Of a DNA stretch of 64,000 nucleotides, positions 10,720 to 57,634 are shown piece after piece (position 1 is the first letter of the stretch; every line of letters starts with the position of its first letter). The notes under the pieces were generated by a model. It did no database searches. It saw nothing but the letters and a program-made list of their open reading frames with translations, and had not been told where the DNA came from. A program made the translations under genes and the position numbers. This DNA comes from Labia minor (lineage: Eukaryota > Arthropoda > Insecta > Dermaptera > Spongiphoridae): the NCBI GenBank assembly GCA_963082975.1, contig OY720346.1:45547296-45611295 (forward strand), read 5' to 3'.

Positions 10720-10728
10720 AAAATGTAT
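10720..10728. repeat. 9-bp target-site duplication (left)
   Basis: AAAATGTAT here is identical to 17547-17555, immediately outside the two termini of the fold-back element. Confidence 0.9.
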
Positions 10729-11065
10729 ATGTGCGTGAAGTTAGCACCGCCATTTTATAATTCCAGAAAAAAGGCAATTGTGCTAGGTTGTGCTAAGTTT
10801 GTGCTACGTTGTGCCGCAAACGCCAGTCACCCATCTCAAAAAACAAACCGGAAAATCAAAAAAAACCGGTTTTTTTGCTGGCACCGCCATTTTGTTTTTC
10901 CAAAAAAACAAAAATTGTGCTGGATACTATCTTGGCTACTAAACATTGTGCCGCAAACAGAACTACTCTGGCTCTTTCCGTTTAGGAGAAAAAAAATATC
11001 CAAATTTAATATTATAAGACATAGTATTAAACCTCTTATAATTTTTTCAGAGAGAGAGATAAACA
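10729..11065 (+). repeat. left terminal inverted repeat, single-copy outer part
   Basis: It mirrors 17210-17546. It contains tandem GTGCTA-type motifs (GTTGTGCTA, TTTGTGCTA, GTTGTGCCG) at about 10778-10820. A motif CACCGCCATTTT occurs at about 10746 and again at about 10884. Both arms carry the same open frame (10723-11085 on the plus strand, mirrored on the minus strand at the other end). That frame reads through repeat sequence and has no domain, so I do not call it a gene. Confidence 0.85.
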
Positions 11066-13204
11066 AATTATGCGAGTTGTGCTAAGTTGTGCTGGTTGAA
11101 TACAACAAAGTATCATTCATTAATAAAATAAATGTTGCATAGCTTGCGAAAAAAATGGCAAAAAGTAAGATAGCAAAAACTGAAAATTTACATTTTTGAA
11201 TTTTCGAAAGTTGTGCTGAATTGTGCTAGTCGAGTACAACAACTTTCCCTAATGGCACAATTTCGTCAGATCAAAACTGTCCATGGTACAGCCCAAAATA
11301 GATTTTGGATTGCCCGCTAATCATTATTTCGATCTTTAATTGCATTTTAATCTCGAACTGTTAGAGAAATTCAAATTCTGCGAATTGTGCTGAGTTGTGC
11401 CGACCGAGTACTAAAAGGAACTGCTGATAGTTGTATCGAAAAGTGCGTAGCTTGCCAAAAAAATGGCAAAAAGTCACGTAGCAAAAAGTGAAATTTTACA
11501 TTTTTGAATTTTTGAAAGTTGTGCTGAATTGTGCTAGTCGAGTACAACAACTTTCCCTAATGACACAATTTCGTCAGATCAAAACTGTCCATGGTACAGC
11601 CCAAAATAGATTTTGGTTTGCCCCGTAATCATTATTTCGATCTTTAATTGCATTTTAATCTCGAACGAATACAGAAATCGAAATTCTGCGAGTTGTGCTA
11701 AGTTGTGCTGGTTGAATACAACAAAGTATCATTCATTAATAAAATAAAAATTGCGTAGCTTGCCAAAAAAATGGCAAAAAGTCACGTAGCAAAAAATGAA
11801 ATTTTACATTTGTGAATTTTCGAAAGTTGTGCTGAATTGTGCTAGTCGAGCACAACAACTTTCCCTAATGGCACAATTTCGTCAGATCAAAACTGTCCAT
11901 GGTACAGCCCAAAATAGATTTTGGATTGCCCGCTAATCATTATTTCGATCTTTAATTGCATTTTAATCTCGAACTGTTAGAGAAATTCAAATTCTGCGAA
12001 TTGTGCTGAGTTGTGCCGACCGAGTACTAAAAGGAACTGCTGATAGTTGTATCGAAATGTGCGTAGCTTGCCAAAAAAATGGCAAAAAGTCACGTAGCAA
12101 AAAATGAAATTTTACATTTTTGAATTTTCGAAAGTTGTGCTGAATTGTGCTAGTCGAGCACAACAACTTTCCCTAATGGCACAATTTCGTCAGATCAAAA
12201 CTGTCCATGGTACAGCCCAAAATAGATTTTGGCTTCTCCGATAATCATTATTTCGATCTTTAATTGCATTTTAATCTCGAACGAATACAGAAATCGAAAT
12301 TCTGCGAGTTGTGCTAAGTTGTGCTGGTTGAATACAACAAAGTATCATTCATTAATAAAATAAAAATTGCGTAGCTTGCCAAAAAAATGGCAAAAAGTCA
12401 CGTAGCAAAAACTGAAATTTTACATTTTTGAATTTTTGAAAGTTGTGCTGAATTGTGCTAGTCGAGTACAACAACTTTCCCTAATGACACAATTTCGTCA
12501 GATCAAAACTGTCCATGGTACAGCCCAAAATAGATTTTGGTTTGCCCCGTAATCATTATTTCGATCTTTAATTGCATTTTAATCTCGAACGAATACAGAA
12601 ATCGAAATTCTGCGAGTTGTGCTAAGTTGTGCTGGTTGAATACAACAAAGTATCATTCATTAATAAAATAAATGTTGCATAGCTTGCGAAAAAAATGGCA
12701 AAAAGTAAGATAGCAAAAACTGAAAATTTACATTTTTGAATTTTCGAAAGTTGTGCTGAATTGTGCTAGTCGAGTACAACAACTTTCCCTAATGGCACAA
12801 TTTCGTCAGATCAAAACTGTCCATGGTACAGCCCAAAATAGATTTTGGATTGCCCGCTAATCATTATTTCGATCTTTAATTGCATTTTAATCTCGAACTG
12901 TTAGAGAAATACAAATTCTGCGAATTGTGCTGAGTTGTGCCGACCGAGTACTAAAAGGAACTGCTGATAGTTGTATCGAAAAGTGCGTAGCTTGCCAAAA
13001 AAATGGCAAAAAGTCACGTAGCAAAAAGTGAAATTTTACATTTTTGAATTTTCGAAAGTTGTGCTGAATTGTGCTAGTCGAGCACAACAACTTTCCCTAA
13101 TGGCACAATTTCGTCAGAAAAAACTGTCCATGGTACAGCCCAAAATAGATTTTGGCTTCTCCGCTAATCATTATTTCGATCTTTAATTGCATGCATCTCG
13201 CGAA
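11066..13204 (+). repeat. left array of the 308-bp unit (7 units)
   Basis: The CCATGG of each unit occurs at 11281, 11589, 11897, 12205, 12513, 12821 and 13128, a 308-bp spacing that slips by one only in the last unit. Units come in three variants, told apart by the block after the AGATTTTGG motif (ATTGCCCGC, TTTGCCCCG, CTTCTCCG), in the order y-x-y-z-x-y-z. Two alternative linkers also occur, one with GGTTGAATACAAC and one with CCGACCGAGTAC. Every unit carries several TTGTGCT motifs in both orientations. Confidence 0.9.
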
Positions 13205-13587
13205 CTATATAATATAATTATATAAATTAAATATTTTTAAAACATAAAAATATGAATGATTTTATGTATTATTATTTTAATCAATTATGATTGAATTTGG
13301 GTTCCAAGCCAACCACTCAGGAATACAATAACTAATAGTTTATTGGAATTTAAGATGACGAATTTCCATATAATAAAGTGGTTCGAAAGATCATTTAATC
13401 ACCACTATACTAATCGACCAGAAACTAATAATATTCTATTGAAATAGTTTTAGAATCTAAATGTAATACTTCTGACATTATTATTATTTTATTGAGTTTT
13501 TACGTAAGTATACTTTATATTTATAAAATATAAACAAAAAATTTATATATATATGAATGGTTAATGGAGAGTGTTTATGGGCCTATC
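13205..13587. other. AT-rich central spacer of the fold-back element
   Basis: About 380 bp unrelated to the 308-bp unit, with no ORF. It would form the loop if the arms paired. It ends exactly where an internal copy of the element terminus begins. Confidence 0.7.
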
Positions 13588-13622
13588 ATGTGCGTGAAGC
13601 TAGCACCGCCATTTTATAATTA
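13588..13622 (+). repeat. internal copy of the fold-back terminus
   Basis: ATGTGCGTGAAGCTAGCACC and the following CGCCATTTTATAATTA repeat the left terminus at 10729 with one difference (C for T). The bases before it do not match the 9-bp duplication, so this end does not mark its own insertion. Confidence 0.85.
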
Positions 13623-13639
13623 CCCAAAAATTACAGTTT

Positions 13640-16600
13640 GGGAAAGTGTTGTGCTTGACTAGCACAACTCGGCACAACTTTCGAAAATTCAAAAATGAAA
13701 ATTTCAGTTTTTCCTACATTACTTTTTGCCATTTTTTTGGCAAGTTACGCACTTTTCGATACAACTATCAACAGTTCCATATAGTACTCCGTCGGAACAA
13801 CTTATCACAACTCGCAGAATTTATATTTCTGTAACGGTTCGAGATTAAAATGAAATTAAAGATCGAAATAATGATTACGGGGCAAACCAAAATCTATTTT
13901 GGGCTGTACCATGGACAGTTTTGATCTGACGAAATTGTGTCATTAGGGAAAGTTGTTGTACTCGACTAGCACAATTCAGCACAACTTTCGAAAATTCAAA
14001 AATGTAAAATTTCATTTTTTGCTACGTGACTTTTTGCCATTTTTTTGGCAAGCTACGCACATTTCGATACAACTATCAGCAGTTCCTTTTAGTACTCGGT
14101 CGGCACAACTCAGCACAATTCGCAGAATTTGAATTTCTCTAACAGTTCGAGATTAAAATGCAATTAAAGATCGAAATAATGATTACGGGGCAAACCAAAA
14201 TCTATTTTGGGCTGTACCATGGACAGTTTTGATCTGACGAAATTGTGTCATTAGGGAAAGTTGTTGTACTCGAATAGCACAATTCAGCACAACTTTCAAA
14301 AATTCAAAAATGTAAAATTTCAGTTTTTGCTACGTGACTTTTTGCCATTTTTTTGGCAAGCTACGCAATTTTTATTTTATTAATGAATGATACTTTGTTG
14401 TATTCAACCAGCACAACTTAGCACAACTCGCAGAATTTCGATTTCTGTATTCGTTCGAGATTAAAATGCAATTAAAGATCGAAATAATGATTAGCGGAGA
14501 AGCCAAAATCTATTTTGGGCTGTACCATGGACAGTTTTGATCTGACGAAATTGTGCCATTAGGGAAAGTTGTTGTGCTCGACTAGCACAATTCAGCACAA
14601 CTTTCGAAAATTCAAAAATGTAAAATTTCATTTTTTGCTACGTGACTTTTTGCCATTTTTTTGGCAAGCTACGCACTTTTCGATACAACTATCAGCAGTT
14701 CCTTTTAGTACTCGGTCGGCACAACTCAGCACAATTCGCAGAATTTGAATTTCTCTAACAGTTCGAGATTAAAATGCAATTAAAGATCGAAATAATGATT
14801 AGCGGGCAATCCAAAATCTATTTTGGGCTGTACCATGGACAGTTTTGATCTGACGAAATTGTGCCATTAGGGAAAGTTGTTGTACTCGACTAGCACAATT
14901 CAGCACAACTTTCGAAAATTCAAAAATGTAAATTTTCAGTTTTTGCTATCTTACTTTTTGCCATTTTTTTCGCAAGCTATGCAACATTTATTTTATTAAT
15001 GAATGATACTTTGTTGTATTCAACCAGCACAACTTAGCACAACTCGCAGAATTTCGATTTCTGTATTCGTTCGAGATTAAAATGCAATTAAAGATCGAAA
15101 TAATGATTAGCGGAGAAGCCAAAATCTATTTTGGGCTGTACCATGGACAGTTTTGATCTGACGAAATTGTGCCATTAGGGAAAGTTGTTGTGCTCGACTA
15201 GCACAATTCAGCACAACTTTCGAAAATTCAAAAATGTAAAATTTCATTTTTTGCTACGTGACTTTTTGCCATTTTTTTGGCAAGCTACGCACTTTTCGAT
15301 ACAACTATCAGCAGTTCCTTTTAGTACTCGCTCGGCACAACTCAGCACAATTCGCAGAATTTGAATTTCTCTAACAGTTCGAGATTAAAATGCAATTAAA
15401 GATCGAAATAATGATTACGGGGCAAACCAAAATCTATTTTGGGCTGTACCATGGACAGTTTTGATCTGACGAAATTGTGTCATTAGGGAAAGTTGTTGTA
15501 CTCGAATAGCACAATTCAGCACAACTTTCAAAAATTCAAAAATGTAAAATTTCAGTTTTTGCTACGTGACTTTTTGCCATTTTTTTGGCAAGCTACGCAA
15601 TTTTTATTTTATTAATGAATGATAATTTGTTGTATTCAACCAGCACAACTTAGCACAACTCGCAGAATTTCGATTTCTGTATTCGTTCGAGATTAAAATG
15701 CAATTAAAGATCGAAATAATGATTAGCGGAGAAGCCAAAATCTATTTTGGGCTGTACCATGGACAGTTTTGATCTGACGAAATTGTGCCATTAGGGAAAG
15801 TTGTTGTGCTCGACTAGCACAATTCAGCACAACTTTCGAAAATTCAAAAATGTAAAATTTCATTTTTTGCTACGTGACTTTTTGCCATTTTTTTGGCAAG
15901 CTACGCACTTTTCGATACAACTATCAGCAGTTCCTTTTAGTACTCGGTCGGCACAACTCAGCACAATTCGCAGAATTTGAATTTCTCTAACAGTTCGAGA
16001 TTAAAATGCAATTAAAGATCGAAATAATGATTAGCGGGCAATCCAAAATCTATTTTGGGCTGTACCATGGACAGTTTTGATCTGACGAAATTGTGCCATT
16101 AGGGAAAGTTGTTGTACTCGACTAGCACAATTCAGCACAACTTTCGAAAATTCAAAAATGTAAATTTTCAGTTTTTGCTATCTTACTTTTTGCCATTTTT
16201 TTCGCAAGCTATGCAACATTTATTTTATTAATGAATGATACTTTGTTGTATTCAACCAGCACAACTTAGCACAACTCGCAGAATTTCGATTTCTGTATTC
16301 GTTCGAGATTAAAATGCAATTAAAGATCGAAATAATGATTAGCGGAGAAGCCAAAATCTATTTTGGGCTGTACCATGGACAGTTTTGATCTGACGAAATT
16401 GTGCCATTAGGGAAAGTTGTTGTGCTCGACTAGCACAATTCAGCACAACTTTCGAAAATTCACAAATGTAAAATTTCATTTTTTGCTACGTGACTTTTTG
16501 CCATTTTTTTGGCAAGCTACGCAATTTTTATTTTATTAATGAATGATACTTTGTTGTATTCAACCAGCACAACTTAGCACAACTCGCAGAATTTCGATTT

Positions 16601-17209
16601 CTGTATTCGTTCGAGATTAAAATGCAATTAAAGATCGAAATAATGATTACGGGGCAAACCAAAATCTATTTTGGGCTGTACCATGGACAGTTTTGATCTG
16701 ACGAAATTGTGTCATTAGGGAAAGTTGTTGTACTCGACTAGCACAATTCAGCACAACTTTCAAAAATTCAAAAATGTAAAATTTCACTTTTTGCTACGTG
16801 ACTTTTTGCCATTTTTTTGGCAAGCTACGCACTTTTCGATACAACTATCAGCAGTTCCTTTTAGTACTCGGTCGGCACAACTCAGCACAATTCGCAGAAT
16901 TTGAATTTCTCTAACAGTTCGAGATTAAAATGCAATTAAAGATCGAAATAATGATTAGCGGGCAATCCAAAATCTATTTTGGGCTGTACCATGGACAGTT
17001 TTGATCTGACGAAATTGTGCCATTAGGGAAAGTTGTTGTACTCGACTAGCACAATTCAGCACAACTTTCGAAAATTCAAAAATGTAAATTTTCAGTTTTT
17101 GCTATCTTACTTTTTGCCATTTTTTTCGCAAGCTATGCAACATTTATTTTATTAATGAATGATACTTTGTTGTATTCAACCAGCACAACTTAGCACAACT
17201 CGCATAATT
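13640..17209 (-). repeat. right array of the 308-bp unit (11 units)
   Basis: The CCATGG of each unit lies at 13909, 14217, 14525, 14833, 15141, 15449, 15757, 16065, 16373, 16681 and 16989, exactly 308 bp apart. Read from the outer end inwards the variants are y-x-z-y-z-x-z-y-z-x-x. The array matches the left arm over its first two units and then diverges in order. The innermost unit (13.65-13.9 kb) is the most diverged. Confidence 0.9.
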
Positions 17210-17546
17210 TGTTTATCTCTCTCTCTGAAAAAATTATAAGAGGTTTAATACTATGTCTTATAATATTAAATTTGGATATTTTTTTTCTCCTAAACGGAAA
17301 GAGCCAGAGTAGTTCTGTTTGCGGCACAATGTTTAGTAGCCAAGATAGTATCCAGCACAATTTTTGTTTTTTTGGAAAAACAAAATGGCGGTGCCAGCAA
17401 AAAAACCGGTTTTTTTTGATTTTCCGGTTTGTTTTTTGAGATGGGTGACTGGCGTTTGCGGCACAACGTAGCACAAACTTAGCACAACCTAGCACAATTG
17501 CCTTTTTTCTGGAATTATAAAATGGCGGTGCTAACTTCACGCACAT
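17210..17546 (-). repeat. right terminal inverted repeat, single-copy outer part
   Basis: Reverse complement of 10729-11065, including the same GTGCTA motif cluster and the same chance open frame on the opposite strand. Confidence 0.85.
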
Positions 17547-17555
17547 AAAATGTAT
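17547..17555. repeat. 9-bp target-site duplication (right)
   Basis: AAAATGTAT, identical to 10720-10728. Confidence 0.9.
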
Positions 17556-18830
17556 TCTACTCTTTAAAAACAATATACATTTTATTTTTGTTTATGTCTA
17601 AAAAAATAAATTCTTAAATCTTTTAATTTTCACGATTACTGTAAGAACACATAAAATTTTTTAATGTTATAAGGGAATTTAAGTGATTGAGTAAATTCTT
17701 TCGAAATTATATTTTCAAAAAATTCAAACATTAATTAAATATTTAAAAACATTAAAGTTTCTGTCACACTTCTTTACTTCTTCCCCCTCTCTGTCCACCG
17801 TCTTTTTATAATTTCATTTCTTTGATCGTTCCACTTTCTATTAATTTATTAATTTCATTTATATCAAAAAACAATGTATATATATATATAATCGTTATTT
17901 TTCAATTTATTTGAAATTGTTTTATCAATTTTAATTCAATCAACCCTAATTCATTTCTGAATATTTTCAGTCTTCAATATTTACAAATGGACATGAATGA
18001 TCTTAACGCGCGATACCAAGACAGCATAAAAATTAAATATTTTTCTAACGAACATACTCCTTTTGTTTGTTTTCTTTTTTTATTGTCTTTTCCATTTATT
18101 AATAGATTAATTTTTCTTTTTACCAAAAAAAAAAACACTTTTGTTTTTATTTTAATAATAATCTAATATATTTTATTAATTATATAATGAAAATAACAAG
18201 AGAGAGAGAAAGTTATTGATTTGAAATTTATCAAATAGAGAAAACTATGGATGATTAATTAATGATGAAATATAAATGCATTAAATGTCGCGTTTCTTTG
18301 ATGACTTTGGTCTTTGACCAATTAAAATAATGGATTGACGAAGAGAGGCGGTTTATGGGAGGGTTGGATGGATGGTTAGTGAAAGATAGTGGGCAAGGGG
18401 TGAGTAGAGGGAAGGATATGCTAACATAAGCTACTAGAAGTATACTTATGTTTGAAGTGGACAAGGAAAGCAAAAGACTCAACCATTTGCATACACCATT
18501 ATTCGTAATAATACATAACAACAAATGAAATGTGTTTTATTTTATAGTTTTTCTGTTGTTTTTTTTTGGAGGGGAGGGTGAGGAAGAGTAATATATTATA
18601 CATTTGATTTATTTATTGATTTATTGAATAACAAAACCTGAACGTGTGAAAAAAAATTGAGAATATTTAACATTTGCTAGATATATTAGTTATAATTTCA
18701 TTTTATGAATTCTTTTCTTATTCTTTTATATATTATTAAATGTGTTCTCAGTGATTTCTATTTATTAAATACTTGATAATATTTATTAAAATTTAATAAA
18801 AATTAATATCAATTATATATATATAAATAA
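17556..18830. other. AT-rich non-coding stretch
   Basis: AT-rich filler. A slightly less AT-rich patch lies at 18280-18500. No domain-bearing ORF, RNA gene or repeat family recognised. Confidence 0.5.
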
Positions 18831-19430
18831 GCTGGAGTGTCTCCACTCGACTATCTCGCAATTTGAATTGGATTAAATAACATATATTATATTTAAATTA
18901 AATGTAATTAATTATAAACTATAAATTAAAATTAATAAATAATATTTATTAAACCAGCGCATGTTGGCTCTTTGTTGATGGCACCACGTCACGTGTTGGC
19001 GCGTGATTTGCAGTGTTAAAAAATTAATTCCAGTACTTTCAACGATTCAATCAAGTTGAATTTCTATATATAGTAGTTTTAAACAATTTTGAATCATGTG
19101 AAAAACTATCAAACATATATCTTTATTTTTACGGTCACTTTAGAAGAAAAAAAATCAAAACGTTGTAAGTAATGGCCCTCTTCCGGTTGAGCTACATTTC
19201 TCAAAATTTGATATAAAACTACGAATTTTGAATAATGCTCGTTGTATAAAATATCATTATTCTAGCTCAAACCTTTTTTTACGTAATCTTGTCTACCTAC
19301 ACACACACAGACATTTTTCTCAACCTTAGTGAAAATGACTCAGGGTCCTTCAAAACGTATAAAAACATCAAAATCTCACCATCGAAAATTTTCATGATCG
19401 CAATACTATCTCAGGCGAGATAGTAAAAAT
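18831..19430 (+). mobile_element. family-A interspersed repeat, copy 1 (HINE/DINE-like)
   Basis: The copy starts CTGGAGTGTCTCCACTC (a GAGTG-TCTC-CACTC hairpin). ACTATCTCGC at 18850-18859 is inverted by GCGAGATAGT at 19415-19424, and the copy ends AAAAAT. At the 3' end ACTATCTC pairs with GAGATAGT in a short hairpin. An AC microsatellite sits at about 19300. No ORF. Related copies lie at 32793-33188, 38177-38795 and 57635-58201. Offset inverted repeats, a 3' hairpin and an internal microsatellite are typical of Helentron-derived non-autonomous repeats. Confidence 0.7.
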
Positions 19431-22400
19431 CTAATTAATAATTCTACTATTTTTAAACGTCATATTTTTCGCATTAAAAAAAATATTATATTATTAATGA
19501 AAAACTATAACAAAAAAATTCTTTATACTATTTTAAACTAAAAAGATTTACTTAAAAAGATACTCTCCGCATGTAAGTAAAAATCGGATTTCTATGAATA
19601 ATGGCTGTCCGTATTATTCATTTGAGTTTATTTGCAATGATATTATACAAGAATATTTTGAAACTATTTTTAATAATATAAATCCATTCGAATTCATAAT
19701 ATTAATAATATTAATAATATACGTATATTAATATATTAATTTGTTACTATTAAAGAATCACTCGTTTATCTATGGCAAATGTTTAAAGTAAAGTAAAATT
19801 TTAATTAAAGTAAAATTTTCTCAATAGATTTCGCTTATACTGTATCAAACTGACGTCACCTGCTTTTGTCACGTGATAGCGTAGTCAGTTTTTAATATTA
19901 AGATTTAATTAATCATTATAATTACTACTTTTTTATAACTGTTCTTTTAAAACCAAATTAAAAGGATATGTTATATAATGTAATAATATAAATATTAAAC
20001 TACTTTATATTAGAGCAAAGTCATAAGGTTAACACAATAGTTAACTTTTTCAGTTAAAATTTCTAACCTAAAATCTCTATTTATTAATGGTAGGGAAGGA
20101 ATTGAATGAAGGATTATCATTATCACACGACTACGAATAAATACTTTATACTAATAGTAATGAAAAAATACTATTTTTAATTCTCTAAAACTATCATAAT
20201 TTTAAATATATTACTAAAAATTTATTTCAACAAATTCCCGATTTGACCTAAAGAAAGTTATCTATATAATGGTGTAATAATAAAGAAAGAAAATAGTAAT
20301 AAAAATAAATAAATATGTATATCTGAAACAAAACCGCATTCTAAAATTTGAAATTATTTTTATTAAATGTTAATTTTTTTATTTTTAATATATTTAAAAT
20401 TTAAAAATAAAACAAATGATTAAACACATATTTATTGTTAGTGTTCAAAAATTTTAGTTTGAAAATCAGTATTGACTAATATAGAAATTTACTATTAATA
20501 TTTTTCTTTTACATTTATGTCAGTTATCTTGTTAACATAAATAACACACTTGTAGATTTAAAATATTTATTTAAGAAAAAATAAATTTCATTAAAAATAA
20601 GTGAAGTTTCAATTAATTTTTAGTAATTGAATCAATATTTAAATAACATTTCTATATTTTGTATGTTTATGAAAATGTGTGCGAAGATGACAAGGGAGAA
20701 GGGAGAAAGGTCCAGCCAAAGTGAATCTTGGAGATAAAGGAGGGCGGATGAAGATCGATAAGAGCAGGCCTTGGTCCCAGGTGTGAACTGAGCTGCCGCA
20801 ACCGCAAACCAACCCCTTTTAGAACTCTATAATTTTCACAACTCCACCCCATTTGACATCCTCGCTCTGTCTCTTTCTATCTTCAAGAGAATCACGATGA
20901 AGGGAAACAGGGCGGGAGGGCAGAGAAAGGCTGGTTAGAGTAAAAATCTGGATCGAGCTACTCAGTTGACAACAAGGGCACAAAGTGTGAATTTTTAATT
21001 TCAATTTTAATTAAACATACATTATACTTTGTTAGAAAGACATGAAAAAGACTATAAAAGATTTTACAAGGTTGGTTTAGTAGGAGTGGCGAGGGATGAG
21101 AGAAATGATTCTGATAATTGAACAAAATTTATCATCAAAGATAAAAAATAAAAAAAAAAACAACGAAACATATTTATTTTATTATATAATATATATAAGC
21201 AAGAAATTCAATTAAAAGTGAGAGGAGGCATCAATCATATATATAAATATATTCTGAGTTAGATTTTATTTAAATTATGAATAAGGTGCCATAATTTATA
21301 ATAATATTGTAAAAACTGCTAAAAATAGGATTTGATATAGATACAATACATATTAGTTTAATATGGGAGGGAAAAGACTGATATTTTTTTTTATTGATAT
21401 TTGGAAAGAAAACCTTTAAATAAATTGAACTCTAAATTTTTCTAATAAGGAAATCCTAAATTAGCAAATATCTTATTATAAGTTTAATTTTATTTTAAAT
21501 AATCAGAATTAAAGAAATGTTGAATTATTATATTATAATTAATATTGTTATTTTGATTTAAAAAATATTATTTTAATTTTTATAATCGGATTTTAATAAA
21601 CTTAGATTTATAATAAACGCTTATATATAATAAATTATAACATATTTGTTACAATCACTTCTGGAATTTTATAATTTAGTATCTTATCATTATAATAAAT
21701 AGAAAATAAGAGAAAAAAAAAATTAAGAAAAAATAAAACTAAGATAATTATCAAAAATAAACATTGAAAGGATTTTATCAATTCAATTTAATCCAGGAAT
21801 TAAAAACTAAATCGGCAGACGATTCACACTTGAGATTAAGTCTTCTAATCATTTATATATATATATATTTATAGGTAAACTAAGAGAAAAAGAGAATGAG
21901 AGAGAGAGAGAGAGAAAATATATATCAATTAAATATGGTTCGAATCTCCGTTAAGAGCCTCTGAATAATCATTTTAATATTTGGTTTATTATCTTTCTAA
22001 TCTTAAGAGAGAGAAAAGGAGAGGGTGGAGAAGGGTACGGGGAGGGGATGAAGATTAATTTCCTTTTAATCTATATCCACTTGAAAATTTTAAATTAAAA
22101 ATATCTTTTTATGATAAGAAAGGATTAAAAAAAATCAAGTGATAATTAAACATATAATTACCTTGAAATATGAATACATCAAGTATGATATATAGATAAA
22201 AATATATTTTTTGCTGAAACTAATAGACAACATTAGTAACACATTTAGAAATTCAATATTATTACTAAAATCTCATTTATTTCAATTCTAAACCAATTCC
22301 ATACAATTCATATCTCTTCAAATTTAATTATATTGTTTTATTTATGAATTTTTCCCTTTTCACAATCTTTTGGATCTTTCTACATAAATAAACCATTTAA

Positions 22401-24079: not shown

Positions 24080-24644
24080 TTGTGAGTATGGAGGCATGGC
24101 GTGCGTACGTGTGTAAAGTGAGCTCCTGAATTAACTCTTACTTTTGTGGGATATACGGATGATTTATTGTTGAAAGTTATATAGAATAGATGATCAAGAC
24201 CTGTATCATTAATTGAACAATAAAATGTACCTGAAAAGGATACAAGGATTGAAAAATCATTGATATGAACATCTGCATTTCAAGCAATTATTCTATTCAT
24301 ATGTTTGTTCAACGAGCATTTATTTTAAGTATATTAATTTGGAATGATGGAAGATACGAATGTAAATAGATAAGTATATTTTTATATCTTTTGAATTTTG
24401 ATTAAAAATAATTCTTTTGAAATTGAAATTTGTCACTACGAACATATGTTGAATATAAACACTTTGCTTCACTTCTCTATGAATAAATTGGTGAATATTT
24501 TTTAGAAAACTAAATAATATCTTATAAAATATATAAGGGTTGTATATATTTATATTCTTATAAAAAGTGGAGAATAAATAAATAAATGATGCATATTCTG
24601 ATAAAAACAAAATTACTTTGGAAAATATTTAAAAGTTCTATATG
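22881..24644. other. AT-rich non-coding stretch
   Basis: AT-rich filler with a TA run at about 24045-24076. The open frame at 24320-24610 is low in complexity and shows no domain. Confidence 0.5.
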
Positions 24645-25115
24645 TGTAATATTATAAATAAAATATAAATATAGATATAAATAAAATTAAAATAAGATAA
24701 AATCCTGTTACTTAATACTTATATTAAAAATACACTATATATTCTTTGAAATGTATTTAAAAGTACTATATGAATAATATTATAAATGAAATATAAATAT
24801 AAATATAAATAAAATTAAAATAAAATAAAATAAAATAAAATCCTGTTACTTACTACTTATATTAAAAATACACTATATACTCTTTGAAAAATGTTTAAAG
24901 TTCTATATGTATAATATTATAAGTAAAATATAAATATAAATATAAATAAAATAAAATAAAATCCTGTTACTTACTACTTATATTAAAAATACACTATATA
25001 CTCTTTGAAAAATATTTAAAAGTTCTATGTGTATAATATTATAAGAAAAATATAAATATAAATATAAATAAAATAAAATCCTGTTACTCACTACTTATAT
25101 TATATTAAAAATACA
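24645..25115 (+). repeat. tandem array of about 120-138-bp units upstream of the LINE
   Basis: CCTGTTACT begins at 24704, 24842, 24963 and 25080, that is at 138, 121 and 117 bp. Each unit runs through ACTTATATTAAAAATACAC and then an AAATA-rich stretch that varies in length. The last unit is cut off where the LINE leader begins. It may be the LINE's 5' promoter array or the target into which the LINE inserted. Confidence 0.75.
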
Positions 25116-25170
25116 CACACGCTCGACTGTTTCTTTTCTTTTCTTGTGTAAACATCTTGCATAAAAAGTG

Positions 25171-26799
25171 ATGGAAAAAAATCTTTTAAATCAAGCAATG
25201 GACAATAAACAAAATGGGAAAACTACCCCAGGTGGCAGACCAGATACAAATCTGGAAAATCCACCCTCTTTGGAGGCAGGCCTCATGGATTCTGGGGGAG
25301 GCCAGCTATTGCTTGTGGAAAAGGATGGTTTTAAAAAGAGTAGTAAAACTTCTAGATCTCCACCTCTTACAGTTAAGTCACTAACTGACAATAAAACGCA
25401 AAAAGCTGATTATTTGTCAAATATAAAAGAAGTTGAAATTGAAAACAAAAAATATTATAATGAATGGCAAAAAGAATTAAAAGAAAAATTAGCCCTTCAA
25501 GAAATTTTAAATAACATGCAACAAAAGATTAAGGACTTGGAAAATAAAATTCTGATTGATGAAAATAAAGCATCATCATCAAATCAGACAATAAATGAAC
25601 TAGTCTATGTTACTGATGAAGAAGAGCTTGAAAGAGAAACTAACTGGACTATTAAATCTAATAGAGAAAAAAAAAGAAGAAGGGAAGCTTCTACTAGTCC
25701 GGTGCTTTATCCTAATAATATAAACAACACAAAAACTATGCAAAATAAAGCAAAGCAAAATGCGAATAAATTACTTAATAATAATAACAAAACAACAAAA
25801 GATGATAGAGATTTAGGAAATCTTCAACTTAAACCTCCACCAATATATGTAAAAGAACAAAGTAATCATGCACACATAACAAATATAATTAAAAATTCTA
25901 TAGGGACACATACATTCCTAGCTAAAACTCTCAGTAATGGAGATCTCAAATTTAACCTAGAAACGAGTGAAGCATATCGAATCATGATTGATATTTTAAA
26001 AAATAATTCCATACCACACCATACTTATGAAAATAAAAGTAATCGTCCTATAAGAGTTATGGTCAAAGGACTTCACCATAGCTGGAAACCCGATGAAATT
26101 AAGAATAATTTAAAAGGTAGAGGATTTGATATTGAACAAGTAACACCAAAATTATCATGGAAGGAAAAAAAGCCTTTAAACATGTTTACTCTGACTTTTA
26201 ATAACTCAGAAAAAATAGAAAATATTCACAAAATAAACAATATTCTCTACACTAAAGTAGAAATTCACCCAATGCGTGGATCAAAATTAGTTCCACAATG
26301 CAAAAGGTGTCAAAAATTTGGTCATACTCAAAATTATTGCTTTGAAGGACCGAGATGCGTAAAATGTGGAAAAGAGCACCTAACAATTGAATGCCAAAAA
26401 CCAAAAGAAGTTAAGGCAGAATGTGTTAACTGCGGTGGTGAACACCCTGCAAACTATCGTGGGTGCCAAATAGCGAAAAAAGCTCAAGAATTACGAGCTA
26501 AACAAAGAAAATTGAATGCTCAAAGGCAAAAAATTGACCCTATTGTGAAACAAAAGCCCCAACAACAGGCGAATTCTGAAAATCTAAAAGTGAATGAGAA
26601 TGTATTATCATCTCACACTAGAAATACTGAAAGTTATTCAGATGTAGTTAAGAAAGATGCTAGTGTAAATGAAATGCTTCAAGAACTCTTAAAAAAAATG
26701 AATAAAATTGAAACATTTCAAAGTGAAATAAAATCTTCAATCGCTGTAATTAACAGACGAGTAGAAGCACTAGAAAATAAATTAACAAGCAAAATATGA
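25171..26799 (+). CDS. LINE ORF1 protein (gag-like, zinc-knuckle RNA-binding)
   Basis: 542 residues from the ATG at 25171; the in-frame GTG just before it is not a plausible eukaryotic start. A Lys/Glu-rich coiled-coil segment covers about residues 82-130, and a basic patch (KKRRREAS) lies near 167-174. A PRE_C2HC-type domain covers about 290-360. Three zinc knuckles follow: C377/C380/H385/C390, C396/C399/H403/C408 and C418/C421/H425/C432. A second predicted helix lies at 500-540. ORF1 proteins of the Jockey clade bind the element's RNA and form the retrotransposition particle. The stop overlaps the ORF2 start as ATGA, which suggests coupled reinitiation. The codons are AT-biased like the surroundings. 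No break is seen. Confidence 0.9.
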   Translation: MEKNLLNQAMDNKQNGKTTPGGRPDTNLENPPSLEAGLMDSGGGQLLLVEKDGFKKSSKTSRSPPLTVKSLTDNKTQKADYLSNIKEVEIENKKYYNEWQKELKEKLALQEILNNMQQKIKDLENKILIDENKASSSNQTINELVYVTDEEELERETNWTIKSNREKKRRREASTSPVLYPNNINNTKTMQNKAKQNANKLLNNNNKTTKDDRDLGNLQLKPPPIYVKEQSNHAHITNIIKNSIGTHTFLAKTLSNGDLKFNLETSEAYRIMIDILKNNSIPHHTYENKSNRPIRVMVKGLHHSWKPDEIKNNLKGRGFDIEQVTPKLSWKEKKPLNMFTLTFNNSEKIENIHKINNILYTKVEIHPMRGSKLVPQCKRCQKFGHTQNYCFEGPRCVKCGKEHLTIECQKPKEVKAECVNCGGEHPANYRGCQIAKKAQELRAKQRKLNAQRQKIDPIVKQKPQQQANSENLKVNENVLSSHTRNTESYSDVVKKDASVNEMLQELLKKMNKIETFQSEIKSSIAVINRRVEALENKLTSKI

Positions 26800-29462
26800 A
26801 AAATTTAACCATTATGTGTTGGAATGCCAATGGGCTCATTAGTAAAAAAGATGAATTAGAAGTTACCTTAAATTTAAACAATATTGATGTGTGTCTTATA
26901 TCAGAAACACACGGAACTAGAGAAACAGTATGCAAGATTCGGGGATATAAATTCTATCACGCAATCCACCCGAGTAATAAGGCAAGAGGTGGAAGCGGCA
27001 TACTAATAAGAGAATCAATCCAACACTATTTAGAAGATAAAATAGAAACAGATAAAGCACAAATTGCTGCTGTTAACATAAAAAGTCATAATCATCCCAT
27101 CACAGTAGCAAGTATCTACTGTCCCCCACGCTATAAATTAACACATATAGAATATAAAAATATTTTTGACCAACTCGGCGTTCGCTTTATTCTTGGTGGA
27201 GACTTCAATGCCAAGCATACACATTGGGGGTCACGCCTAATTTCAGACAAAGGAAGGGAACTGTACAAAGCGATAAGCAATAAAAAATGTGTTGTGATAT
27301 CAACGGCAAAACCAACATATTGGCCGTCAGACCCAAGAAAAATCCCGGACTTAATTGATTTCTTCATTACAAGAAATATATCCTCAAATTATGCCACTGT
27401 AGATGAGTGCAATGAGCTAAGTTCTGATCATATGCCAATAATACTGACACTTAGCGACTCTATTATCAAAAAATCTTTCAATCCCACACTCACCAACAAA
27501 CGCACTGATTGGGAAAGTTTTAAAATTGACTTAGCTCGAAGAATGCATCTTAATCGTCAAATGATATCTTCTAACCAAATTGATCAAGAACTCGAACAAC
27601 TAGTATTAGATATACAAACGGCGGCATGGAATAATACTCCAAAAATATATAAAAAGTTACAAGGTGTAAATTACCCTCGCGAAATCGTTAACCTTGTTAG
27701 GGAAAAAAGAAAAGCACGAAATAGATGGCAAAGAACAAGGGCGCCTTTGGATAAAACCAGATGGAATCAATTAAGTACTAAACTTAGAAATGAAATAAAA
27801 CAAATAAAAAATGAATCAATCAATAGATATATTAGTGAGTTAACCTATACTAAAGATTCGGAATATTCTCTCTGGAGAGCCATGAAATCTATTAAGAGAC
27901 CTATTATTCAGGCACCACCTATTAAAGATTTAAATAATACATGGGCCAAAGATAATCAAAAAAAAGCTGATGTATTTGCTGAATATTTGCAAGATATATT
28001 CACCCCTAATCCACCGATGAAAAATGATACACCTCTTGAACAAATTGTAATATCCCTAGAAGAAGAGGAAATTCCTAAAATAACAATAAGGGAAATACAA
28101 AAAATTATTAAAGACGAAATCAATCCAAAAAAGGCCCCTGGATACGATCTTATCACAGGGCAAGTACTTAAAAACCTACCACGCAAAGCTGTTGTAAAGA
28201 TAAGTCAAATAATAAACGCGGCCCTAAAACTTAGGTATGTGCCACAGATATGGAAGATTGCTGAGGTAATCATGATTCTAAAACCGGGAAAGTCTGGTGA
28301 TGACTGTGCGTCATACAGACCAATATCGCTCCTTCCGATCTTGTCTAAGCTGTTTGAGAAAATCTTACTTAGAAGACTCATTCCAATTATAAATGAAAAA
28401 AATTTAATTCCGGACCATCAGTTTGGTTTTCGAAAACAGCATTCCACAATTGATCAAGTACATAGATTAGTACATAACATCGAACAAGCTTTAGAAGAAA
28501 AGAAAATATGTTCAGCCATCTTCCTCGACGTAACTAAAGCTTTCGATAAAGTCTGGCACGAAGGGCTAAAATATAAGCTCTACAAAGCGCTTCCTGTTAG
28601 ATATGCTGAGGTGCTTGATTCGTATATTACTGACAGGTGCTTCAGGGTGAGACAGGAGGATGCTTACTCTGAGTTGAGACCAATACAGGCTGGAGTTCCG
28701 CAGGGAAGTGTCTTAGGACCACTATTATACTTACTATATACAGCCGACCTGCCTGAAATTGAATATAATATAACGGCAACGTTTGCAGATGACACTGCAA
28801 TTTTAGCCATCGGAAAGACGATAAATGAGTCAACTACAAAGTTAAATCATTCCATCTCCAAAATACAAAAATGGACAACACGCTGGAGAATTAAACTAAA
28901 TGAGACAAAATCAGTTCACGTTAACTTTACTAATCGCAAATTTGACCATGTACCAATCTTTCTCAACAATAAGATCATTCCCTATGCCAATGAAGCTAAA
29001 TATCTGGGAATGACCTTAGATACTAAGCTACGATGGAAAGCACATGTTAAAAAAAAAAGAGAAGAAATAAATCTTAAACTTAGAAGAATGTATTGGTTAA
29101 TGGGAAGAGATTCAGTCTTGCCAATTGAAAACAAATTGATGCTCTACAAGCAGGTCCTAAAACCAGTCTGGACCTATGGTAGCCAGCTTTGGGGTACGGC
29201 TGCAAAGAGCAATGTACAAATAATACAAAGGCTTCAAAATAAAATACTCAGGACAATTGTTAATGCTCCCTGGTATATACGCAACGATGAATTACATCAG
29301 GATCTTGGAATAGAGACGGTTCAACAAGAAATTCGGAAATTCGCAGCAGCTCACCACCAAAGACTGCAAATGCACGTAAACGCCGAGGCCCTCCGTCTTC
29401 TCGATGTGGCAGATCAAAATAGAAGATTACGAAGGATTAAACCTCAAGACCTTATTAATTAA
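26796..29462 (+). CDS. LINE ORF2 protein (apurinic-type endonuclease plus reverse transcriptase)
   Basis: 888 residues, a normal length for Jockey-clade ORF2. The N-terminal endonuclease nicks the target DNA. Its motifs are WNANG (9-13), E37 in ISETHG, GGDFNAKHTHW (134-144), DLIDFF (185-190) and SSDHMP (209-214). The reverse transcriptase carries LKPGK (495-499), YRPISLL (507-513), GFRKQHS (544-550), LDVTKAFD with catalytic D578 (577-584), GVPQGSVLGPLLY (633-645) and FADD with the paired Asp (663-666). A thumb region (YLGMTLD, near 736) follows, and then a basic C-terminus. All key residues are present. Target-primed reverse transcription at a nicked chromosomal site is the known mechanism for this family. 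Translation probably follows ORF1 through the ATGA overlap. Confidence 0.95.
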   Translation: MKNLTIMCWNANGLISKKDELEVTLNLNNIDVCLISETHGTRETVCKIRGYKFYHAIHPSNKARGGSGILIRESIQHYLEDKIETDKAQIAAVNIKSHNHPITVASIYCPPRYKLTHIEYKNIFDQLGVRFILGGDFNAKHTHWGSRLISDKGRELYKAISNKKCVVISTAKPTYWPSDPRKIPDLIDFFITRNISSNYATVDECNELSSDHMPIILTLSDSIIKKSFNPTLTNKRTDWESFKIDLARRMHLNRQMISSNQIDQELEQLVLDIQTAAWNNTPKIYKKLQGVNYPREIVNLVREKRKARNRWQRTRAPLDKTRWNQLSTKLRNEIKQIKNESINRYISELTYTKDSEYSLWRAMKSIKRPIIQAPPIKDLNNTWAKDNQKKADVFAEYLQDIFTPNPPMKNDTPLEQIVISLEEEEIPKITIREIQKIIKDEINPKKAPGYDLITGQVLKNLPRKAVVKISQIINAALKLRYVPQIWKIAEVIMILKPGKSGDDCASYRPISLLPILSKLFEKILLRRLIPIINEKNLIPDHQFGFRKQHSTIDQVHRLVHNIEQALEEKKICSAIFLDVTKAFDKVWHEGLKYKLYKALPVRYAEVLDSYITDRCFRVRQEDAYSELRPIQAGVPQGSVLGPLLYLLYTADLPEIEYNITATFADDTAILAIGKTINESTTKLNHSISKIQKWTTRWRIKLNETKSVHVNFTNRKFDHVPIFLNNKIIPYANEAKYLGMTLDTKLRWKAHVKKKREEINLKLRRMYWLMGRDSVLPIENKLMLYKQVLKPVWTYGSQLWGTAAKSNVQIIQRLQNKILRTIVNAPWYIRNDELHQDLGIETVQQEIRKFAAAHHQRLQMHVNAEALRLLDVADQNRRLRRIKPQDLIN

Positions 29463-32290: not shown

Positions 32291-32792
32291 AATTTGAAAA
32301 ATTTATTCTAGATTTGAATCAAATTTGATACGCGTACATTACTTGAATTTAATAATTAAATTTTAATTTTTTAAATTTAAATTTTATCAAAAATATTATA
32401 TTTAAGATTCTTAAATATATTGATTACCTATAAATTCAAAAAAATGTCTTCTATATTTATAGCAACCAATGATGGCGAACTTTTTGAGATCGATGTGTGA
32501 AAATTTCGAAAAACGAAATATAACTTTCGTGGCGTGTAACATGTCACAAAAGTAAAGAATAAAAACAATTAAATATAAATAATTTTTGTATTTATATACA
32601 TGCACGTCTGGTTTTGGAATTAAATTATTAATTATTATTATCGTAAGTAATAATATTTGAATTATGAAATTTTTTATTTTTGAAGAAATACAATTACGAT
32701 AGCTCGCATGTCATAAGTACGCCATCACTGATAGTTACAAATGTATGTACTTATATAAAAAACAGAATCACACAAATAAATCTTATAACTTT
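32291..32792. other. AT-rich non-coding stretch
   Basis: AT-rich sequence without recognised features. Confidence 0.45.
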
Positions 32793-33188
32793 ATAAAAAT
32801 TAATTCTGGTACTTTCAGCGATTCAATCAAGCTGAAATTCTATATATAGCAGTTTTATACAATTTTAATCATGTGAAAAACTATCAAATATATATCTTTA
32901 TTTTTACGGCCAGTTTAGAGAAAAAAAAATTAAAACGTTGTAGGTAATAACCCTCTTCCGGATGAGCTACATTTCTCAAAAGTCGATAGAAAACTAGGAA
33001 TTTTGAATAATGCCCATGTACCAAATTTCATCATTCTAGCTCAAACCTTTTTTACGTAATCTTGTTTACCTACACACACACACACAGACATTTTTCTCAA
33101 GCTTAGTGAAAATGACTCAGGGCCCTTCAAAATATATAAAATCATCAAAATCTCGACATTGAAATTTTTCTGGCGAGATAGTAAAAAT
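32793..33188 (+). mobile_element. family-A interspersed repeat, copy 2 (5'-truncated)
   Basis: It matches copy 1 from the TTAATTCTGGTACTTTCAGC segment to the shared end GGCGAGATAGTAAAAAT, with an AC run near 33072. The 5' hairpin end is missing. About 30 bp beyond the end (TCTAATTAATAATTCTA) is also shared with copy 1, so the two may descend from one longer parent. Confidence 0.65.
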
Positions 33189-38150: not shown

Positions 38151-38176
38151 CTTTAAAATATCGTTAATATAAATAA

Positions 38177-38795
38177 GCTGGAGTGTCTCCACTTGACTAT
38201 CTCGCAATTTGAATTGGATTAAATAACATAATATATTATATTTAAATTAAATTTAATTAATTATAAATTATAAATAATAAATATTAAACCAGTGCATGTT
38301 TGGTTTTTTATTGATGGCACCATGGCACGTGTTGGCGCGTGAGATTTGCAGTGTTAAAAAATTAATTCTGGTACTTTCAGCGATTCAATCAAGCTGAAAT
38401 TCTATATATAGCAGTTTTATACAATTATTAATCATGTGAAAAATTATCAAATGTATATCTTTATTTTTACGGTCACTTTAGAGGAAAAAAAATCAAAACG
38501 TTGTAGGTAATGACCCTCTTCCGGTTGAGCTACATTTCTCAAAAGTTGATAGAAAACTATGAATTTTGAATAATGCTCATGTACCAAATTGCATCATTCT
38601 AGCTCAAACCGTTTTTGCGTAATCTTGTCTACATACATACACACACACACACATACATACACACATACACACAGAAATTTTTCTCAACCTTAGTGAAAAT
38701 GATTCAGGAACCTTCAAAACGTATAAAAACATCAAAATCTCAACATCGAAAATTTTCGTGATCGCAATTACTATCTCTGGCGAGATAGTAAAAAT
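38177..38795 (+). mobile_element. family-A interspersed repeat, copy 3
   Basis: Full-length relative of 18831-19430. It has the hairpin start (CTGGAGTGTCTCCACT), the CTATCTCGC inverted repeat, an AC microsatellite near 38640 and the 3' hairpin ACTATCTC-TGGC-GAGATAGT followed by AAAAAT. Downstream flanks differ from copies 1 and 4, which fixes the right boundary near AAAAAT. Confidence 0.7.
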
Positions 38796-39884
38796 TGTTT
38801 AATATGTAAATATATGTGATTACTATTCAAAATACATGTTCTCTTTAGTTTAGATAAATACTAGTTAATTAACTTTATTTTATTTATCACTAATAATGTA
38901 TTTTGTGTTAAAAGAATTAATTTTGCATAAGTTACATTAGTAATTTTATTAAAAAAAAGGATTTGTCTTCTTATTTTTTACCATATAAATTAGATTCTTT
39001 GAACGAATATCTATTCAAGATGATGAACCCCACCCCATGGACTCACAAAAACCGTTACGATTCACAAAATCAACTTCTTACATAAAAATCGTTGACTGTT
39101 TTTATGTTGCTTGGTGACATTAGAAATATTTCGAAAGTCCGTGTTCCTTTAATTTGACATGATGTTTTGATTAGAGAGAATCAAATGATTGAATTTTAGA
39201 AGAAAACAAATATTTTCTTGTTAGCAATTAAATGAATGGAAATGTGTTTTTATAGGAGGGGGTGATTGATTGGAAATTAGTCTTTGGTTTGTTTCACATC
39301 ACGAGTTGGTGGTATGGATGAATCACAGACAGATGATGATGGGGGATTGTCTTTTCGATTGGGAAGACTTGCGAGTGCCAATTGCTGATCCATTCCGGCT
39401 CCGGCTGCTGCTCTTCTTTGGCTTCTGGAAAGGAGTGGGGCGGTGAAGGAAGGAGGGAAGGTCGCGTGGGCAGCAGCTGGTAGTCGCGTGCCATTTGTTC
39501 ATGGCTTCCCGTTGCCACTCACAATCGGGATTATTTCCTAAATGATACATCACCACACCGGAATTAAAATCTTCAATAACAACTAATAAAGGACATATTA
39601 ACGAAAATATATATACAGTGAAAAATATAAAAGAAAAAAAAATTTAATATAACAAACTAAAAAAATAATAATTTCTAATAAATTATGATTAAATATGCAA
39701 CATTATTACCGTTCGACCTTTTAAAAATTATTGATATACAATTTTTTAATTATTTATTACAATTATTAAATGGATTTTCTAAAAATTTATTTTCTAAAGT
39801 GGTACAAATTAATTAAGATAACTCGATTGTTCAAGATAAAAACAATATTTAAATTTTCTTGATAAAATATTAAATATATATATT

Positions 39885-55642: not shown

Positions 55643-57634
55643 TTTGAGTTTGAAACCTCGAAAAGGTCATCCTTTTTGGGGAGAGATGGGATGTGTGTGT
55701 GTGTGTTTCCTATCTAGCAGGGGTGAACAAGTGATTTAATTGCCCCGGGGAGCTTCCTCTTCCCTATGGACCATCATCCTCTCTCTTTCACTCTCTTCCC
55801 ACCCCTTTCTCCCCAACTAACCTGATTAGCTTTCAAGGATCAAATTCAATAAACGCCCGGGACCTATTCGTGCAATTTATATCTTGGTTGTTACTCGAGA
55901 CATCCCCAGTCAGTAAAATTCTATTTTATAAACATAAAGCAAACTTTGAACTTGGTTTTTCGTGAAGAGAGAAAGAATGTGAAAAAGTGAGATTTCAGTG
56001 TAGGGAAGCCGATTGAACAGGCAAATGAAATTATACAATTTCTTCTATTATTCTTTTTTTTTTATTTGTATTATAAAAACAAATTAACTAGTTTCCCTTA
56101 CTTGTTTCTTAAATGATAATTAAATGAGACATAAATCGATTGTTTTGCTTATCGCCTGCCAAAAAATTACATTAAAATTATCTCAAATTTTTAAGAAATC
56201 TTTTTAAAAAATAAAACAAAATGTGAAAATAATATGATGATCTCTTTTAAAATACGTAGTTGATTATTTCAAGGTTATACTTATATATAATTAAACAAAT
56301 ATAACAATAAATAAACAAATAAATTTATAAATGCCATTGACATTTACAATACAGATATAAGTTAAACATCAAAAAATTGATCATTGGCATATTTTTAAAT
56401 TCAAATTTTAAATGAAATCAAAAAATTGAACACTCTTTTTAATTTTTTCCCATTCAAAAAACCTATATAATCAAAAACATTTGTTCAATTAGATTCATTA
56501 TCATTTTTTTTAATTAATTTTTTCATATTTCTATTTCATAAATAAAAATGAATTAAGAAGTTAATTATGCTTTTTTTAATAATTTATATTTGCACACAAG
56601 GTTCTGTCGTTGATTGTCAAATTCTTCCCACATTCAAGTGTCTACCTAGATTTGCTTCACTCTTGCCAACCACGTGTTCCGCAATCTCAACCTTTATATT
56701 CAATTTACATTTGACTGATATTTGAATTGAAATTTAAACAAATTCAAAAATTATTTTTTAAAATTTATTTGAGAACAAAATAATATTACAAGAAAGAATT
56801 TATAAAAATAATAATGAAAATGAAATATTTAAATAAATTTATTTGTTTATCTTTTCTTTTTTCTTCAATTTTATAACAATTTTCTAATTTCAGCATTTCG
56901 ATTTTTTAATTGTAAGTCAAAATAACTTAAATAAATGGTGAAATGAAAAAAACACTTTGGTTAGTTATGCAGGATCTTACCACACACAATACCGAGTAAG
57001 AAGACTACAATTTATACTAAACGTGTATATAAAATTTATATTTATAATTTTTTGCAAATTCATGAGGGTTGTGAAGGCTGAAAAGAAAGGGTGGGGAATG
57101 GTTGCATGCACCGTTTGCAATATTTTCCCAGTTGCAATGACACCAACACATATACATTAATATATATACCCAAATGACCACCAAATGCAATATTTATGAG
57201 CAATACCAATTAAATTCACCCTAGGACAACGTTTTTAATGAATATTTGTGTTTGTTCTGAATTTATTATACATAATTTTTTTCTACTCTGATTTCGTATT
57301 TTTTAATTTTATTTATTTATTTTTGGGGAAAGAGAACATTTAGTCCTTTATCATTAATGATAATAGTTTGTATGAAAAACTGTCAATATAGGTTAACATT
57401 TTATCTGATAATAATAAAAAAAATCTTTAAATCCACATATAAATGATTTTAGTAATTTAATTAATTTTTTTATATTTATAATAAAAAAAAGTCCTTCATA
57501 TTAGAATAAAACAAATGTCCATTTATCCATATAAATAGTTAGAATAATAAAATCAAGAAGGTTAATATGAGGAGGATATTTAATAGGATAGGATAGGATG
57601 AAGTTTGGTATAATGTTTATTTATTGGAATTAAT
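54191..57634. other. AT-rich stretch with island and microsatellites
   Basis: A GC-richer island lies at about 55320-55890 and includes a CT run then a TA run (55586-55639) and a GT run near 55693. At 54424-54490 lies a segment shared with 61279-61368. No gene recognised. Confidence 0.4.
54424..54490 (+). repeat. dispersed repeat segment shared with 61279-61368
   Basis: TTTCTATGACAGCAAAA, then AGTAAACAAATTACATACAT and ACTCTCCTTTATATATAT, occur at both places. The second has an expanded CATA run. Confidence 0.7.

What the first reader, a model, noticed from the sequence alone, without database searches (positions are those of the whole stretch)
10720..17555. 6.8-kb fold-back transposon with arrayed arms and a perfect 9-bp duplication
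Termini are exact inverted copies, AAAATGTAT lies on both sides, and both arms are built from a 308-bp unit in opposite orientation. This matches the plan of Drosophila Foldback elements (tandem-repeat arms, 9-bp duplication, Mutator-like). The unit is far longer than the short repeats described there, and the palindrome is very large. The intact duplication argues for a single insertion of the whole 6.8 kb. It may be an undescribed Foldback family.
Basis: partly seen in the sequence, partly recalled or inferred. Interest (0 to 1): 0.92.

Follow-up and report, generated by a model that had tools for sequence, protein, structure and literature searches.

The report
Young insect foldback transposon family
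The 6.8-kb palindrome is one of many recently inserted copies of a non-coding "foldback" jumping gene in an insect genome, with long repeat arms whose length differs from copy to copy; it is a new family of a known kind and not an artefact.

Summary
The element is 10729-17546 (6818 bp), flanked by a perfect 9-bp duplication. It has 336-bp end domains, oppositely oriented arrays of 308-bp units (7 and 11 counted) and a 395-bp non-coding centre. It is a dispersed family in a 604-Mb insect genome: the 20-bp terminus occurs 159 + 162 times (control 0 + 2). Of 32 copies with both ends read, 31 have a perfect 9-bp duplication. One copy sits in another repeat whose four window copies show the empty site. 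So it is a transposon, not a satellite or misjoin.

Best description: a non-autonomous foldback-type DNA transposon, probably moved in trans by a Mutator/Rehavkus-like transposase. No transposase with these ends was found; the superfamily rests on duplication length and structure.

Two features bear on mechanism. A doublet, TTGTGCT-N3-TTGTGCT, occurs in every unit of this copy and in its ends, always pointing inward; one of the two per unit is the most conserved stretch of the unit, so it is a candidate transposase-binding site. Thirteen near-identical copies have 3 centre sequences but 11 lengths, and this copy's outer left arm carries right-arm alleles (arm-to-arm conversion). Tetris and Galileo are close structural precedents.

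The parts
10720..10728 (.). left target-site duplication AAAATGTAT
   Evidence: identical to 17547-17555
10729..11064 (+). left end domain (336 bp) starting ATGTGCGTGAAGTTAGCACC, with four TTGTGC repeats 10-11 bp apart starting at 10778, 10788, 10799 and 10809
   Evidence: no difference from the right end domain
11065..13192 (+). left array of 308-bp units (6.9 copies), two inward-pointing TTGTGCT-N3-TTGTGCT doublets per unit
13193..13587 (.). unique non-coding centre; shorter than in another class of copies that has about 430 bp more
13588..13621 (+). internal copy of the terminus (97% over 34 bp), on the right-arm side only
   Evidence: 97% over 34 bp measured in L029 and L030
13640..17210 (-). 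right array of 308-bp units (11.6 copies), inverted relative to the left
17211..17546 (-). right end domain (336 bp), inverted copy of the left one, sharing a base at end position 236 that no other copy of the 27 compared has
17547..17555 (.). right target-site duplication AAAATGTAT

Best explanation
It is a young copy of a non-autonomous, foldback-type terminal-inverted-repeat DNA transposon family in an insect. A transposase made elsewhere cuts at the ATGTGCGTGAAG ends and inserts with a 9-bp staggered cut (the duplication length is shown; the enzyme is inferred, most likely Mutator/Rehavkus-like). The 308-bp arrays most likely act as arrays of transposase-binding sites, each unit holding two TTGTGCT doublets with a 10-bp step that also occur in the end domain (motif, orientation and conservation shown; binding inferred). 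Array length changes by whole units, independently in the two arms, while centres and ends stay nearly identical, and the arms can copy sequence from one another (both shown by comparison of copies; the step at which this happens, transposition-linked gap repair or replication of the palindrome, is inferred).
For: Perfect 9-bp duplications in 31 of 32 copies with both ends read: 21 of 21, 2 of 2 scored, 5 of 6 (the sixth has 8 of 9 bases) and 3 of 3. The 23 duplications compared are all different. Joined flanks of copy L024 align across the insertion point, with a single target copy, to 4 of 4 copies of another repeat in the window. Terminus 159 + 162 versus 0 + 2 for the control. Among the 100 perfect termini that one search listed, 41 convergent pairs span 660-8510 bp. 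The 100 unit hits that one search listed (of 608) all lie inside elements with paired termini (compared by eye). 41 doublets in the window, all inside the element and all pointing inward, expected 0.02. The doublet at unit positions 145-164 is the most conserved 20-bp stretch among 98 distinct units: mean variability 0.0015 against 0.057 overall. In 13 copies with a nearly identical centre: 3 centre sequences over 455 bp and 11 element lengths. At positions 710 and 760 from the end, 7 of 13 left arms carry A,C and 10 of 13 right arms carry G,G, but the left arms of the window copy and of L011 carry G,G. Over 27 copies the two ends of one element are more alike than in 10000 of 10000 random re-pairings.
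Against: No copy read encodes a transposase, and no transposase locus looked at carries these termini. The terminus begins ATG, whereas most arthropod MULE termini begin with G/C bases (PMC13359780, passage). 18 of the 100 listed perfect termini have no perfect partner within 12 kb. Copies were chosen among the best matches, so intact ones are over-represented. Unit counts rely on the assembly. The second half of the other doublet of the unit is not unusually conserved (variability 0.044), and related units are not independent data. Private changes shared by both ends (14 columns in 4 copies, 10 of them in the old copy L052) are matched by 12 found in one end only, in 6 copies. The two left arms with right-arm alleles may share one ancestral event.
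Confidence: 0.85

Rival explanations
1. The element is moved by a transposase of another superfamily (for example Merlin/IS1595 or P-like), and the 9-bp duplication only resembles Mutator.
For: 56 IS1595-type (Merlin-like) matches exist in the genome. Galileo shows that foldback structure occurs outside Mutator (PMC3573991, passages). The termini begin ATG.
Against: The duplication is 9 bp in every copy scored, as in Rehavkus and several Mutator groups (PMC6446971 table). For the 54 IS1595 matches on contigs with listed termini, the nearest lies 260 kb from one; but only 100 of 321 termini were listed, none on C9 or C10, so this is weak.
Confidence: 0.25
2. A satellite array or palindromic segmental duplication, not a transposon.
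For: Long tandem 308-bp units with higher-order patterns.
Against: Fixed outer boundaries with perfect duplications in 31 of 32 copies scored. The 100 listed of 608 unit matches all lie inside elements with paired termini. Empty sites exist for one copy.
Confidence: 0.02
3. Assembly artefact at this locus (false palindrome or wrong number of units).
For: Large inverted arrays are hard to assemble, and the reads are not available here.
Against: The same anatomy recurs at 31 other loci with different flanks, 30 of them with perfect duplications. The number of units per arm at a given locus is not independently verified.
Confidence: 0.03

Closest known systems
Tetris (Drosophila virilis foldback element, PMC4079207)
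   Same: Non-coding middle; inverted arms made of an outer flanking domain plus tandem units (~220 bp) of variable number; 8-10 bp duplications; no autonomous copy found; units share a stretch with the flanking domain.
   Different: 308-bp units, 1-12 counted per arm here (Tetris TIRs up to 1735 bp); duplications 9 bp in every copy scored; 31 copies with perfect duplications read here (Tetris: three structurally complete); no free array of the unit among the 100 listed of 608 matches. No sequence comparison was made (no Tetris sequence at hand).
Galileo (P superfamily, PMC3573991, PMC3688188)
   Same: Long internally repetitive inverted ends; independent change in repeat number in the two arms (~210-bp units in subfamily F); internal units carry secondary transposase-binding sites in Galileo G.
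   Different: 7-bp duplications and a P-type transposase with THAP sites; arms up to about 1.26 kb. Here 9-bp duplications and a TTGTGCT doublet.
Tm1 (Meloidogyne, Phantom-type MULE, PMC3169594)
   Same: Composite foldback-like ends of variable length; duplications most often 9 bp; non-autonomous copies.
   Different: ~14-bp repeat motif, asymmetric 7-bp terminal motifs, and a transposase-encoding copy is known.
Rehavkus (MULE-related, PMC6446971)
   Same: 9-bp duplications in arthropods; a minisatellite next to a terminal repeat.
   Different: Encodes a transposase with a PHD finger; the minisatellite is described only before the 3' end.
Drosophila FB/NOF (recalled)
   Same: Inverted arms of tandem repeats, 9-bp duplication (recalled).
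   Different: Short repeat units in FB (recalled); no sequence relationship tested.

Membership tests
Foldback-type (structural class) | long inverted arms built of tandem repeats | tested here: met
Foldback-type (structural class) | target-site duplication at dispersed insertions | tested here: met
   31 of 32 perfect; empty sites for one copy
Mutator superfamily | 8-11 bp duplication | tested here: met
   9 bp; range from PMC6446971
Mutator superfamily | MULE transposase in an element with the same termini | tested here: inconclusive
   17 MULE matches; 15 looked at, 10 of them only 1.5 kb either side; none carries these ends
Mutator superfamily | G/C bases at the very termini in most arthropod members | tested here: not met
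   termini start ATG; statement from PMC13359780; a tendency rather than a strict criterion
Rehavkus | 9-bp duplication | tested here: met
   Rehavkus value from PMC6446971
Rehavkus | transposase with PHD finger | not tested
   no coding capacity in the copies read; no Rehavkus model searched
Drosophila FB/NOF | sequence homology of termini or NOF transposase | not testable with these tools
   no FB sequence in the collections used
P superfamily (Galileo) | 7-bp (Galileo, PMC3573991) or 8-bp (P element, recalled) duplication | tested here: not met
   9 bp in all copies scored
Merlin | IS1595-type transposase with the same termini | tested here: inconclusive
   56 matches, none cut out; nearest of the 54 measured is 260 kb from a listed terminus; listing incomplete

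The most novel reading that the evidence does not exclude
The arrays are adjustable transposase-binding arms that are rebuilt at, or close to, every jump. Whole-unit gains and losses and arm-to-arm copying through the fold-back intermediate outpace point mutation, so this family would record the repair tract of each transposition in its arms and would be a natural assay of hairpin or gap repair at transposons.
Probability: 0.3. Interest if true: 0.65.

Novelty: new member of a known kind. Interest (0 to 1): 0.45.

Why it matters
Foldback families are often known from few intact copies (three for Tetris, PMC4079207). Here 31 copies with perfect duplications were read, 13 of them with a nearly identical centre, so that array growth, loss and arm-to-arm conversion can be compared copy by copy. 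The conserved doublet gives a concrete candidate site for the idea, shown so far for Galileo (PMC3688188), that internal repeats of long inverted ends bind transposase.

Tried and rejected
Search for an autonomous copy: PF10551 gave 17 matches. I looked at 15: 12 cut out 1.5 kb either side, two of those re-fetched at 9.9 kb, and three others at 6.6-6.7 kb. None has these termini (up to 6 mismatches; one search shows only five chance-like hits with 7 mismatches), and the end domain and unit gave no match (weak AT-rich matches of the centre only). The two not looked at are C5:7600070 and C5:68183930. PF12762 gave 56 matches, none cut out. Copies with a long or interrupted centre carry insertions and no transposase that I could recognise: L044-L046 an insert of about 600 bp, L031 about 1.9 kb (its left end was not reached), L055 a retrotransposon. 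Satellite and artefact readings were rejected (see rivals). One search appeared to show that left and right arms never share exact units; the finer comparison shows shared outer tracts, so I dropped that reading. In one search the unit-letter strings mix both orientations beyond the centre; I did not use them. One search used only units whose alignment to one query unit ran from position 75 or before to 300 or beyond (227 units, 98 distinct, from 30 loci), so partial and very divergent units are left out. Boundaries of the MULE-Ulp1 family could not be defined.

Literature: listings of 6 searches and passages of PMC4079207 (plus one section), PMC3169594, PMC3573991, PMC3688188, PMC13359780 and PMC6446971 were seen; no whole paper was read. 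No repeat database was searched (none available), so I make no claim that the family is unpublished beyond those listings.

Full report
What is there. The element runs from 10729 to 17546 and is flanked on both sides by AAAATGTAT (10720-10728 and 17547-17555). From outside inwards each arm has a 336-bp end domain beginning ATGTGCGTGAAGTTAGCACC, then an array of 308-bp units (about 6.9 on the left, 11.6 on the right). Between the arrays lies a 395-bp AT-rich centre. On the right-arm side only there is another copy of the terminus, at 13588. No stop-to-stop frame of 150 codons or more lies within it, and no Rfam family reaches its threshold in the window.

The genome. The window lies in an unnamed assembly of 604 Mb. 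It is most likely an insect: 83 matches to PF02949 (7tm_6, insect odorant receptors; that the family is insect-specific is recalled), with 0 of 14 control genomes matching. The controls that matched are prokaryotes, so this control is weak.

It is a family of insertions. The 20-bp terminus with up to 3 mismatches occurs 159 + 162 times, against 0 + 2 for the pattern read backwards. Only 100 of these sites were listed, all perfect, none of them on C9 or C10. Of the 100, 82 form 41 convergent pairs spanning 660-8510 bp and 18 have no perfect partner within 12 kb. I read both ends of 32 copies (window, L009-L030, L049-L057). 31 have a perfect 9-bp duplication and the remaining one matches at 8 of 9 bases. 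Four further copies (L031, L044, L045, L046) were fetched with only one outer end and are not scored. The 23 duplications compared are all different, and I see no strong target motif in their base counts. Copies were picked among the best matches and among perfect termini, so the share of intact ones in the genome may be lower. I joined the flanks of 23 copies, keeping one target copy. Those of L024 fall inside another repeat family of which the window holds four copies, and all four align across the insertion point with a single target copy, at 83-88% identity. L023 also crosses its junction, at 74% identity to one window stretch; none of the other joined flanks, apart from the window's own, gave a match that crosses the junction. 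This is direct evidence for insertion of a whole element.

Classes and age. One class of copies has a centre about 430 bp longer (L029, L030; L056, L057). The window belongs to a class with a shortened centre: twelve copies, the window among them, are identical over the 517 bp searched, and a thirteenth is nearly so. Six copies (L049-L054) show no match to the centre beyond terminus-like stretches; five of them have perfect duplications.

Arms. In the 21 copies the number of units, counted by a conserved anchor, is 2-10 on the left and 1-12 on the right, and the two sides vary independently: L009 has 7 and 1, L024 has 2 and 8. Among the 13 copies with the nearly identical centre there are 3 distinct centre sequences (over 455 bp) but 11 element lengths. 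All 13 left and all 13 right arms differ, although that count includes single-base differences over longer sequence. Whole-unit change thus appears faster than point mutation. Unit numbers depend on the assembly and were not checked with reads.

Exchange between arms. At positions 710 and 760 from the ends, 7 of 13 left arms carry A and C (3 carry A and A, 1 G and A), while 10 of 13 right arms carry G and G (2 carry G and A, 1 G and C). The left arms of the window copy and of L011 instead carry G and G, and in the window the two arms are identical for the first 1196 bp. The window copy also has a T at position 236 in both ends that none of the other 26 copies has. Over 27 copies the two ends of one element are more alike than in 10000 of 10000 random re-pairings: 0.78 differences within an element, 2.41 between elements. 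Part of this comes from L052, an old divergent copy that holds 10 of the 14 shared private columns. Against it, 12 private changes in six copies sit in one end only, so homogenisation is partial. The window copy and L011 may have inherited a single event.

A candidate binding array. TTGTGCT-N3-TTGTGCT (one mismatch allowed) occurs 41 times in the window, all inside the element: 16 on the left, all forward, and 25 on the right, all reverse. The shuffled expectation is 0.02. In this copy each unit has two doublets and each end domain has more, in which four TTGTGC follow at 10-11 bp steps. Across 98 distinct units the doublet at positions 145-164 is the most conserved 20-bp stretch (mean variability 0.0015 against 0.057). 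The second half of the other doublet is near average (0.044), because it alternates between T and C at its last base. Galileo sets a precedent: internal repeats of its long ends bind its transposase (PMC3688188, passages). Binding here is inferred.

Which transposase. None was found. The Mutator domain PF10551 has 17 matches. Twelve of them are one family by DNA similarity, which includes a 1137-codon open frame with Mutator, ZSWIM-type and Ulp1-type protease domain matches. None of the 15 loci looked at carries the termini of this element, but ten were seen only 1.5 kb either side and two matches were not looked at. IS1595/Merlin-type matches number 56; the nearest of the 54 that could be measured is 260 kb from a listed terminus. 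9-bp duplications favour Mutator or Rehavkus (PMC6446971, passages). The ATG start of the termini is untypical for arthropod Mutator elements (PMC13359780, passages). I put Mutator/Rehavkus at about two in three.

Comparison. The anatomy is that of Tetris of Drosophila virilis (outer domain, ~220-bp tandem units, non-coding middle, 8-10 bp duplications, no autonomous copy; PMC4079207, passages and one section), and it shares with Galileo the independent unit-number change of the two arms (PMC3573991, passages). Differences are larger units and arrays, 9-bp duplications throughout and many fresh copies. I therefore class it as a new member of a known kind. The claim of a Foldback (FB) family in the strict sense is not established.

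Noticed in passing
window 25165-29462 (+): Two-ORF non-LTR retrotransposon with long open frames: a 544-aa frame with a sub-threshold PRE_C2HC match and an 893-aa frame with endonuclease and reverse transcriptase domains.
   Followed up: partly
L047 2988-6398 (-): 1137-codon open frame with matches to the Mutator transposase domain, a ZSWIM1-3 RNaseH-like domain and a C-terminal Ulp1-type (C48) protease domain; DNA relatives at 11 other fetched loci.
   Followed up: partly
window 18821-19440, 32791-33170, 38167-38814, 57628-58184: Four copies of one interspersed repeat; they served as empty sites for copy L024.
   Followed up: partly
window 13588-13621 and the same place in L029, L030, L045: Extra copy of the terminus at the inner edge of one arm only, preceded by GGGCCTATC; it may be a relic of a composite origin of the element.
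   Followed up: no
G000 C1:46440786, C4:5379456, C5:25309059; C5:15595097, C5:47927110; C4:31946354, C4:58985454: Different sites carry pairs of termini at exactly equal distance (5021 bp three times, 4825 twice, 5436 twice), so in some lineages arm length may be stable over several jumps.
   Followed up: no
L044, L045, L046: An insertion of about 600-615 bp sits at the same place in the centre of three copies, with a 3-bp overlap at its borders; this suggests a sub-lineage that carried a nested element.
   Followed up: no
L055 1242-5375: An apparent LTR retrotransposon (893-codon frame on the minus strand, the same short frame repeated at both ends) is nested in the centre of this copy.
   Followed up: no
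window 24616-25116: 121-bp tandem repeat array just upstream of the non-LTR retrotransposon.
   Followed up: no
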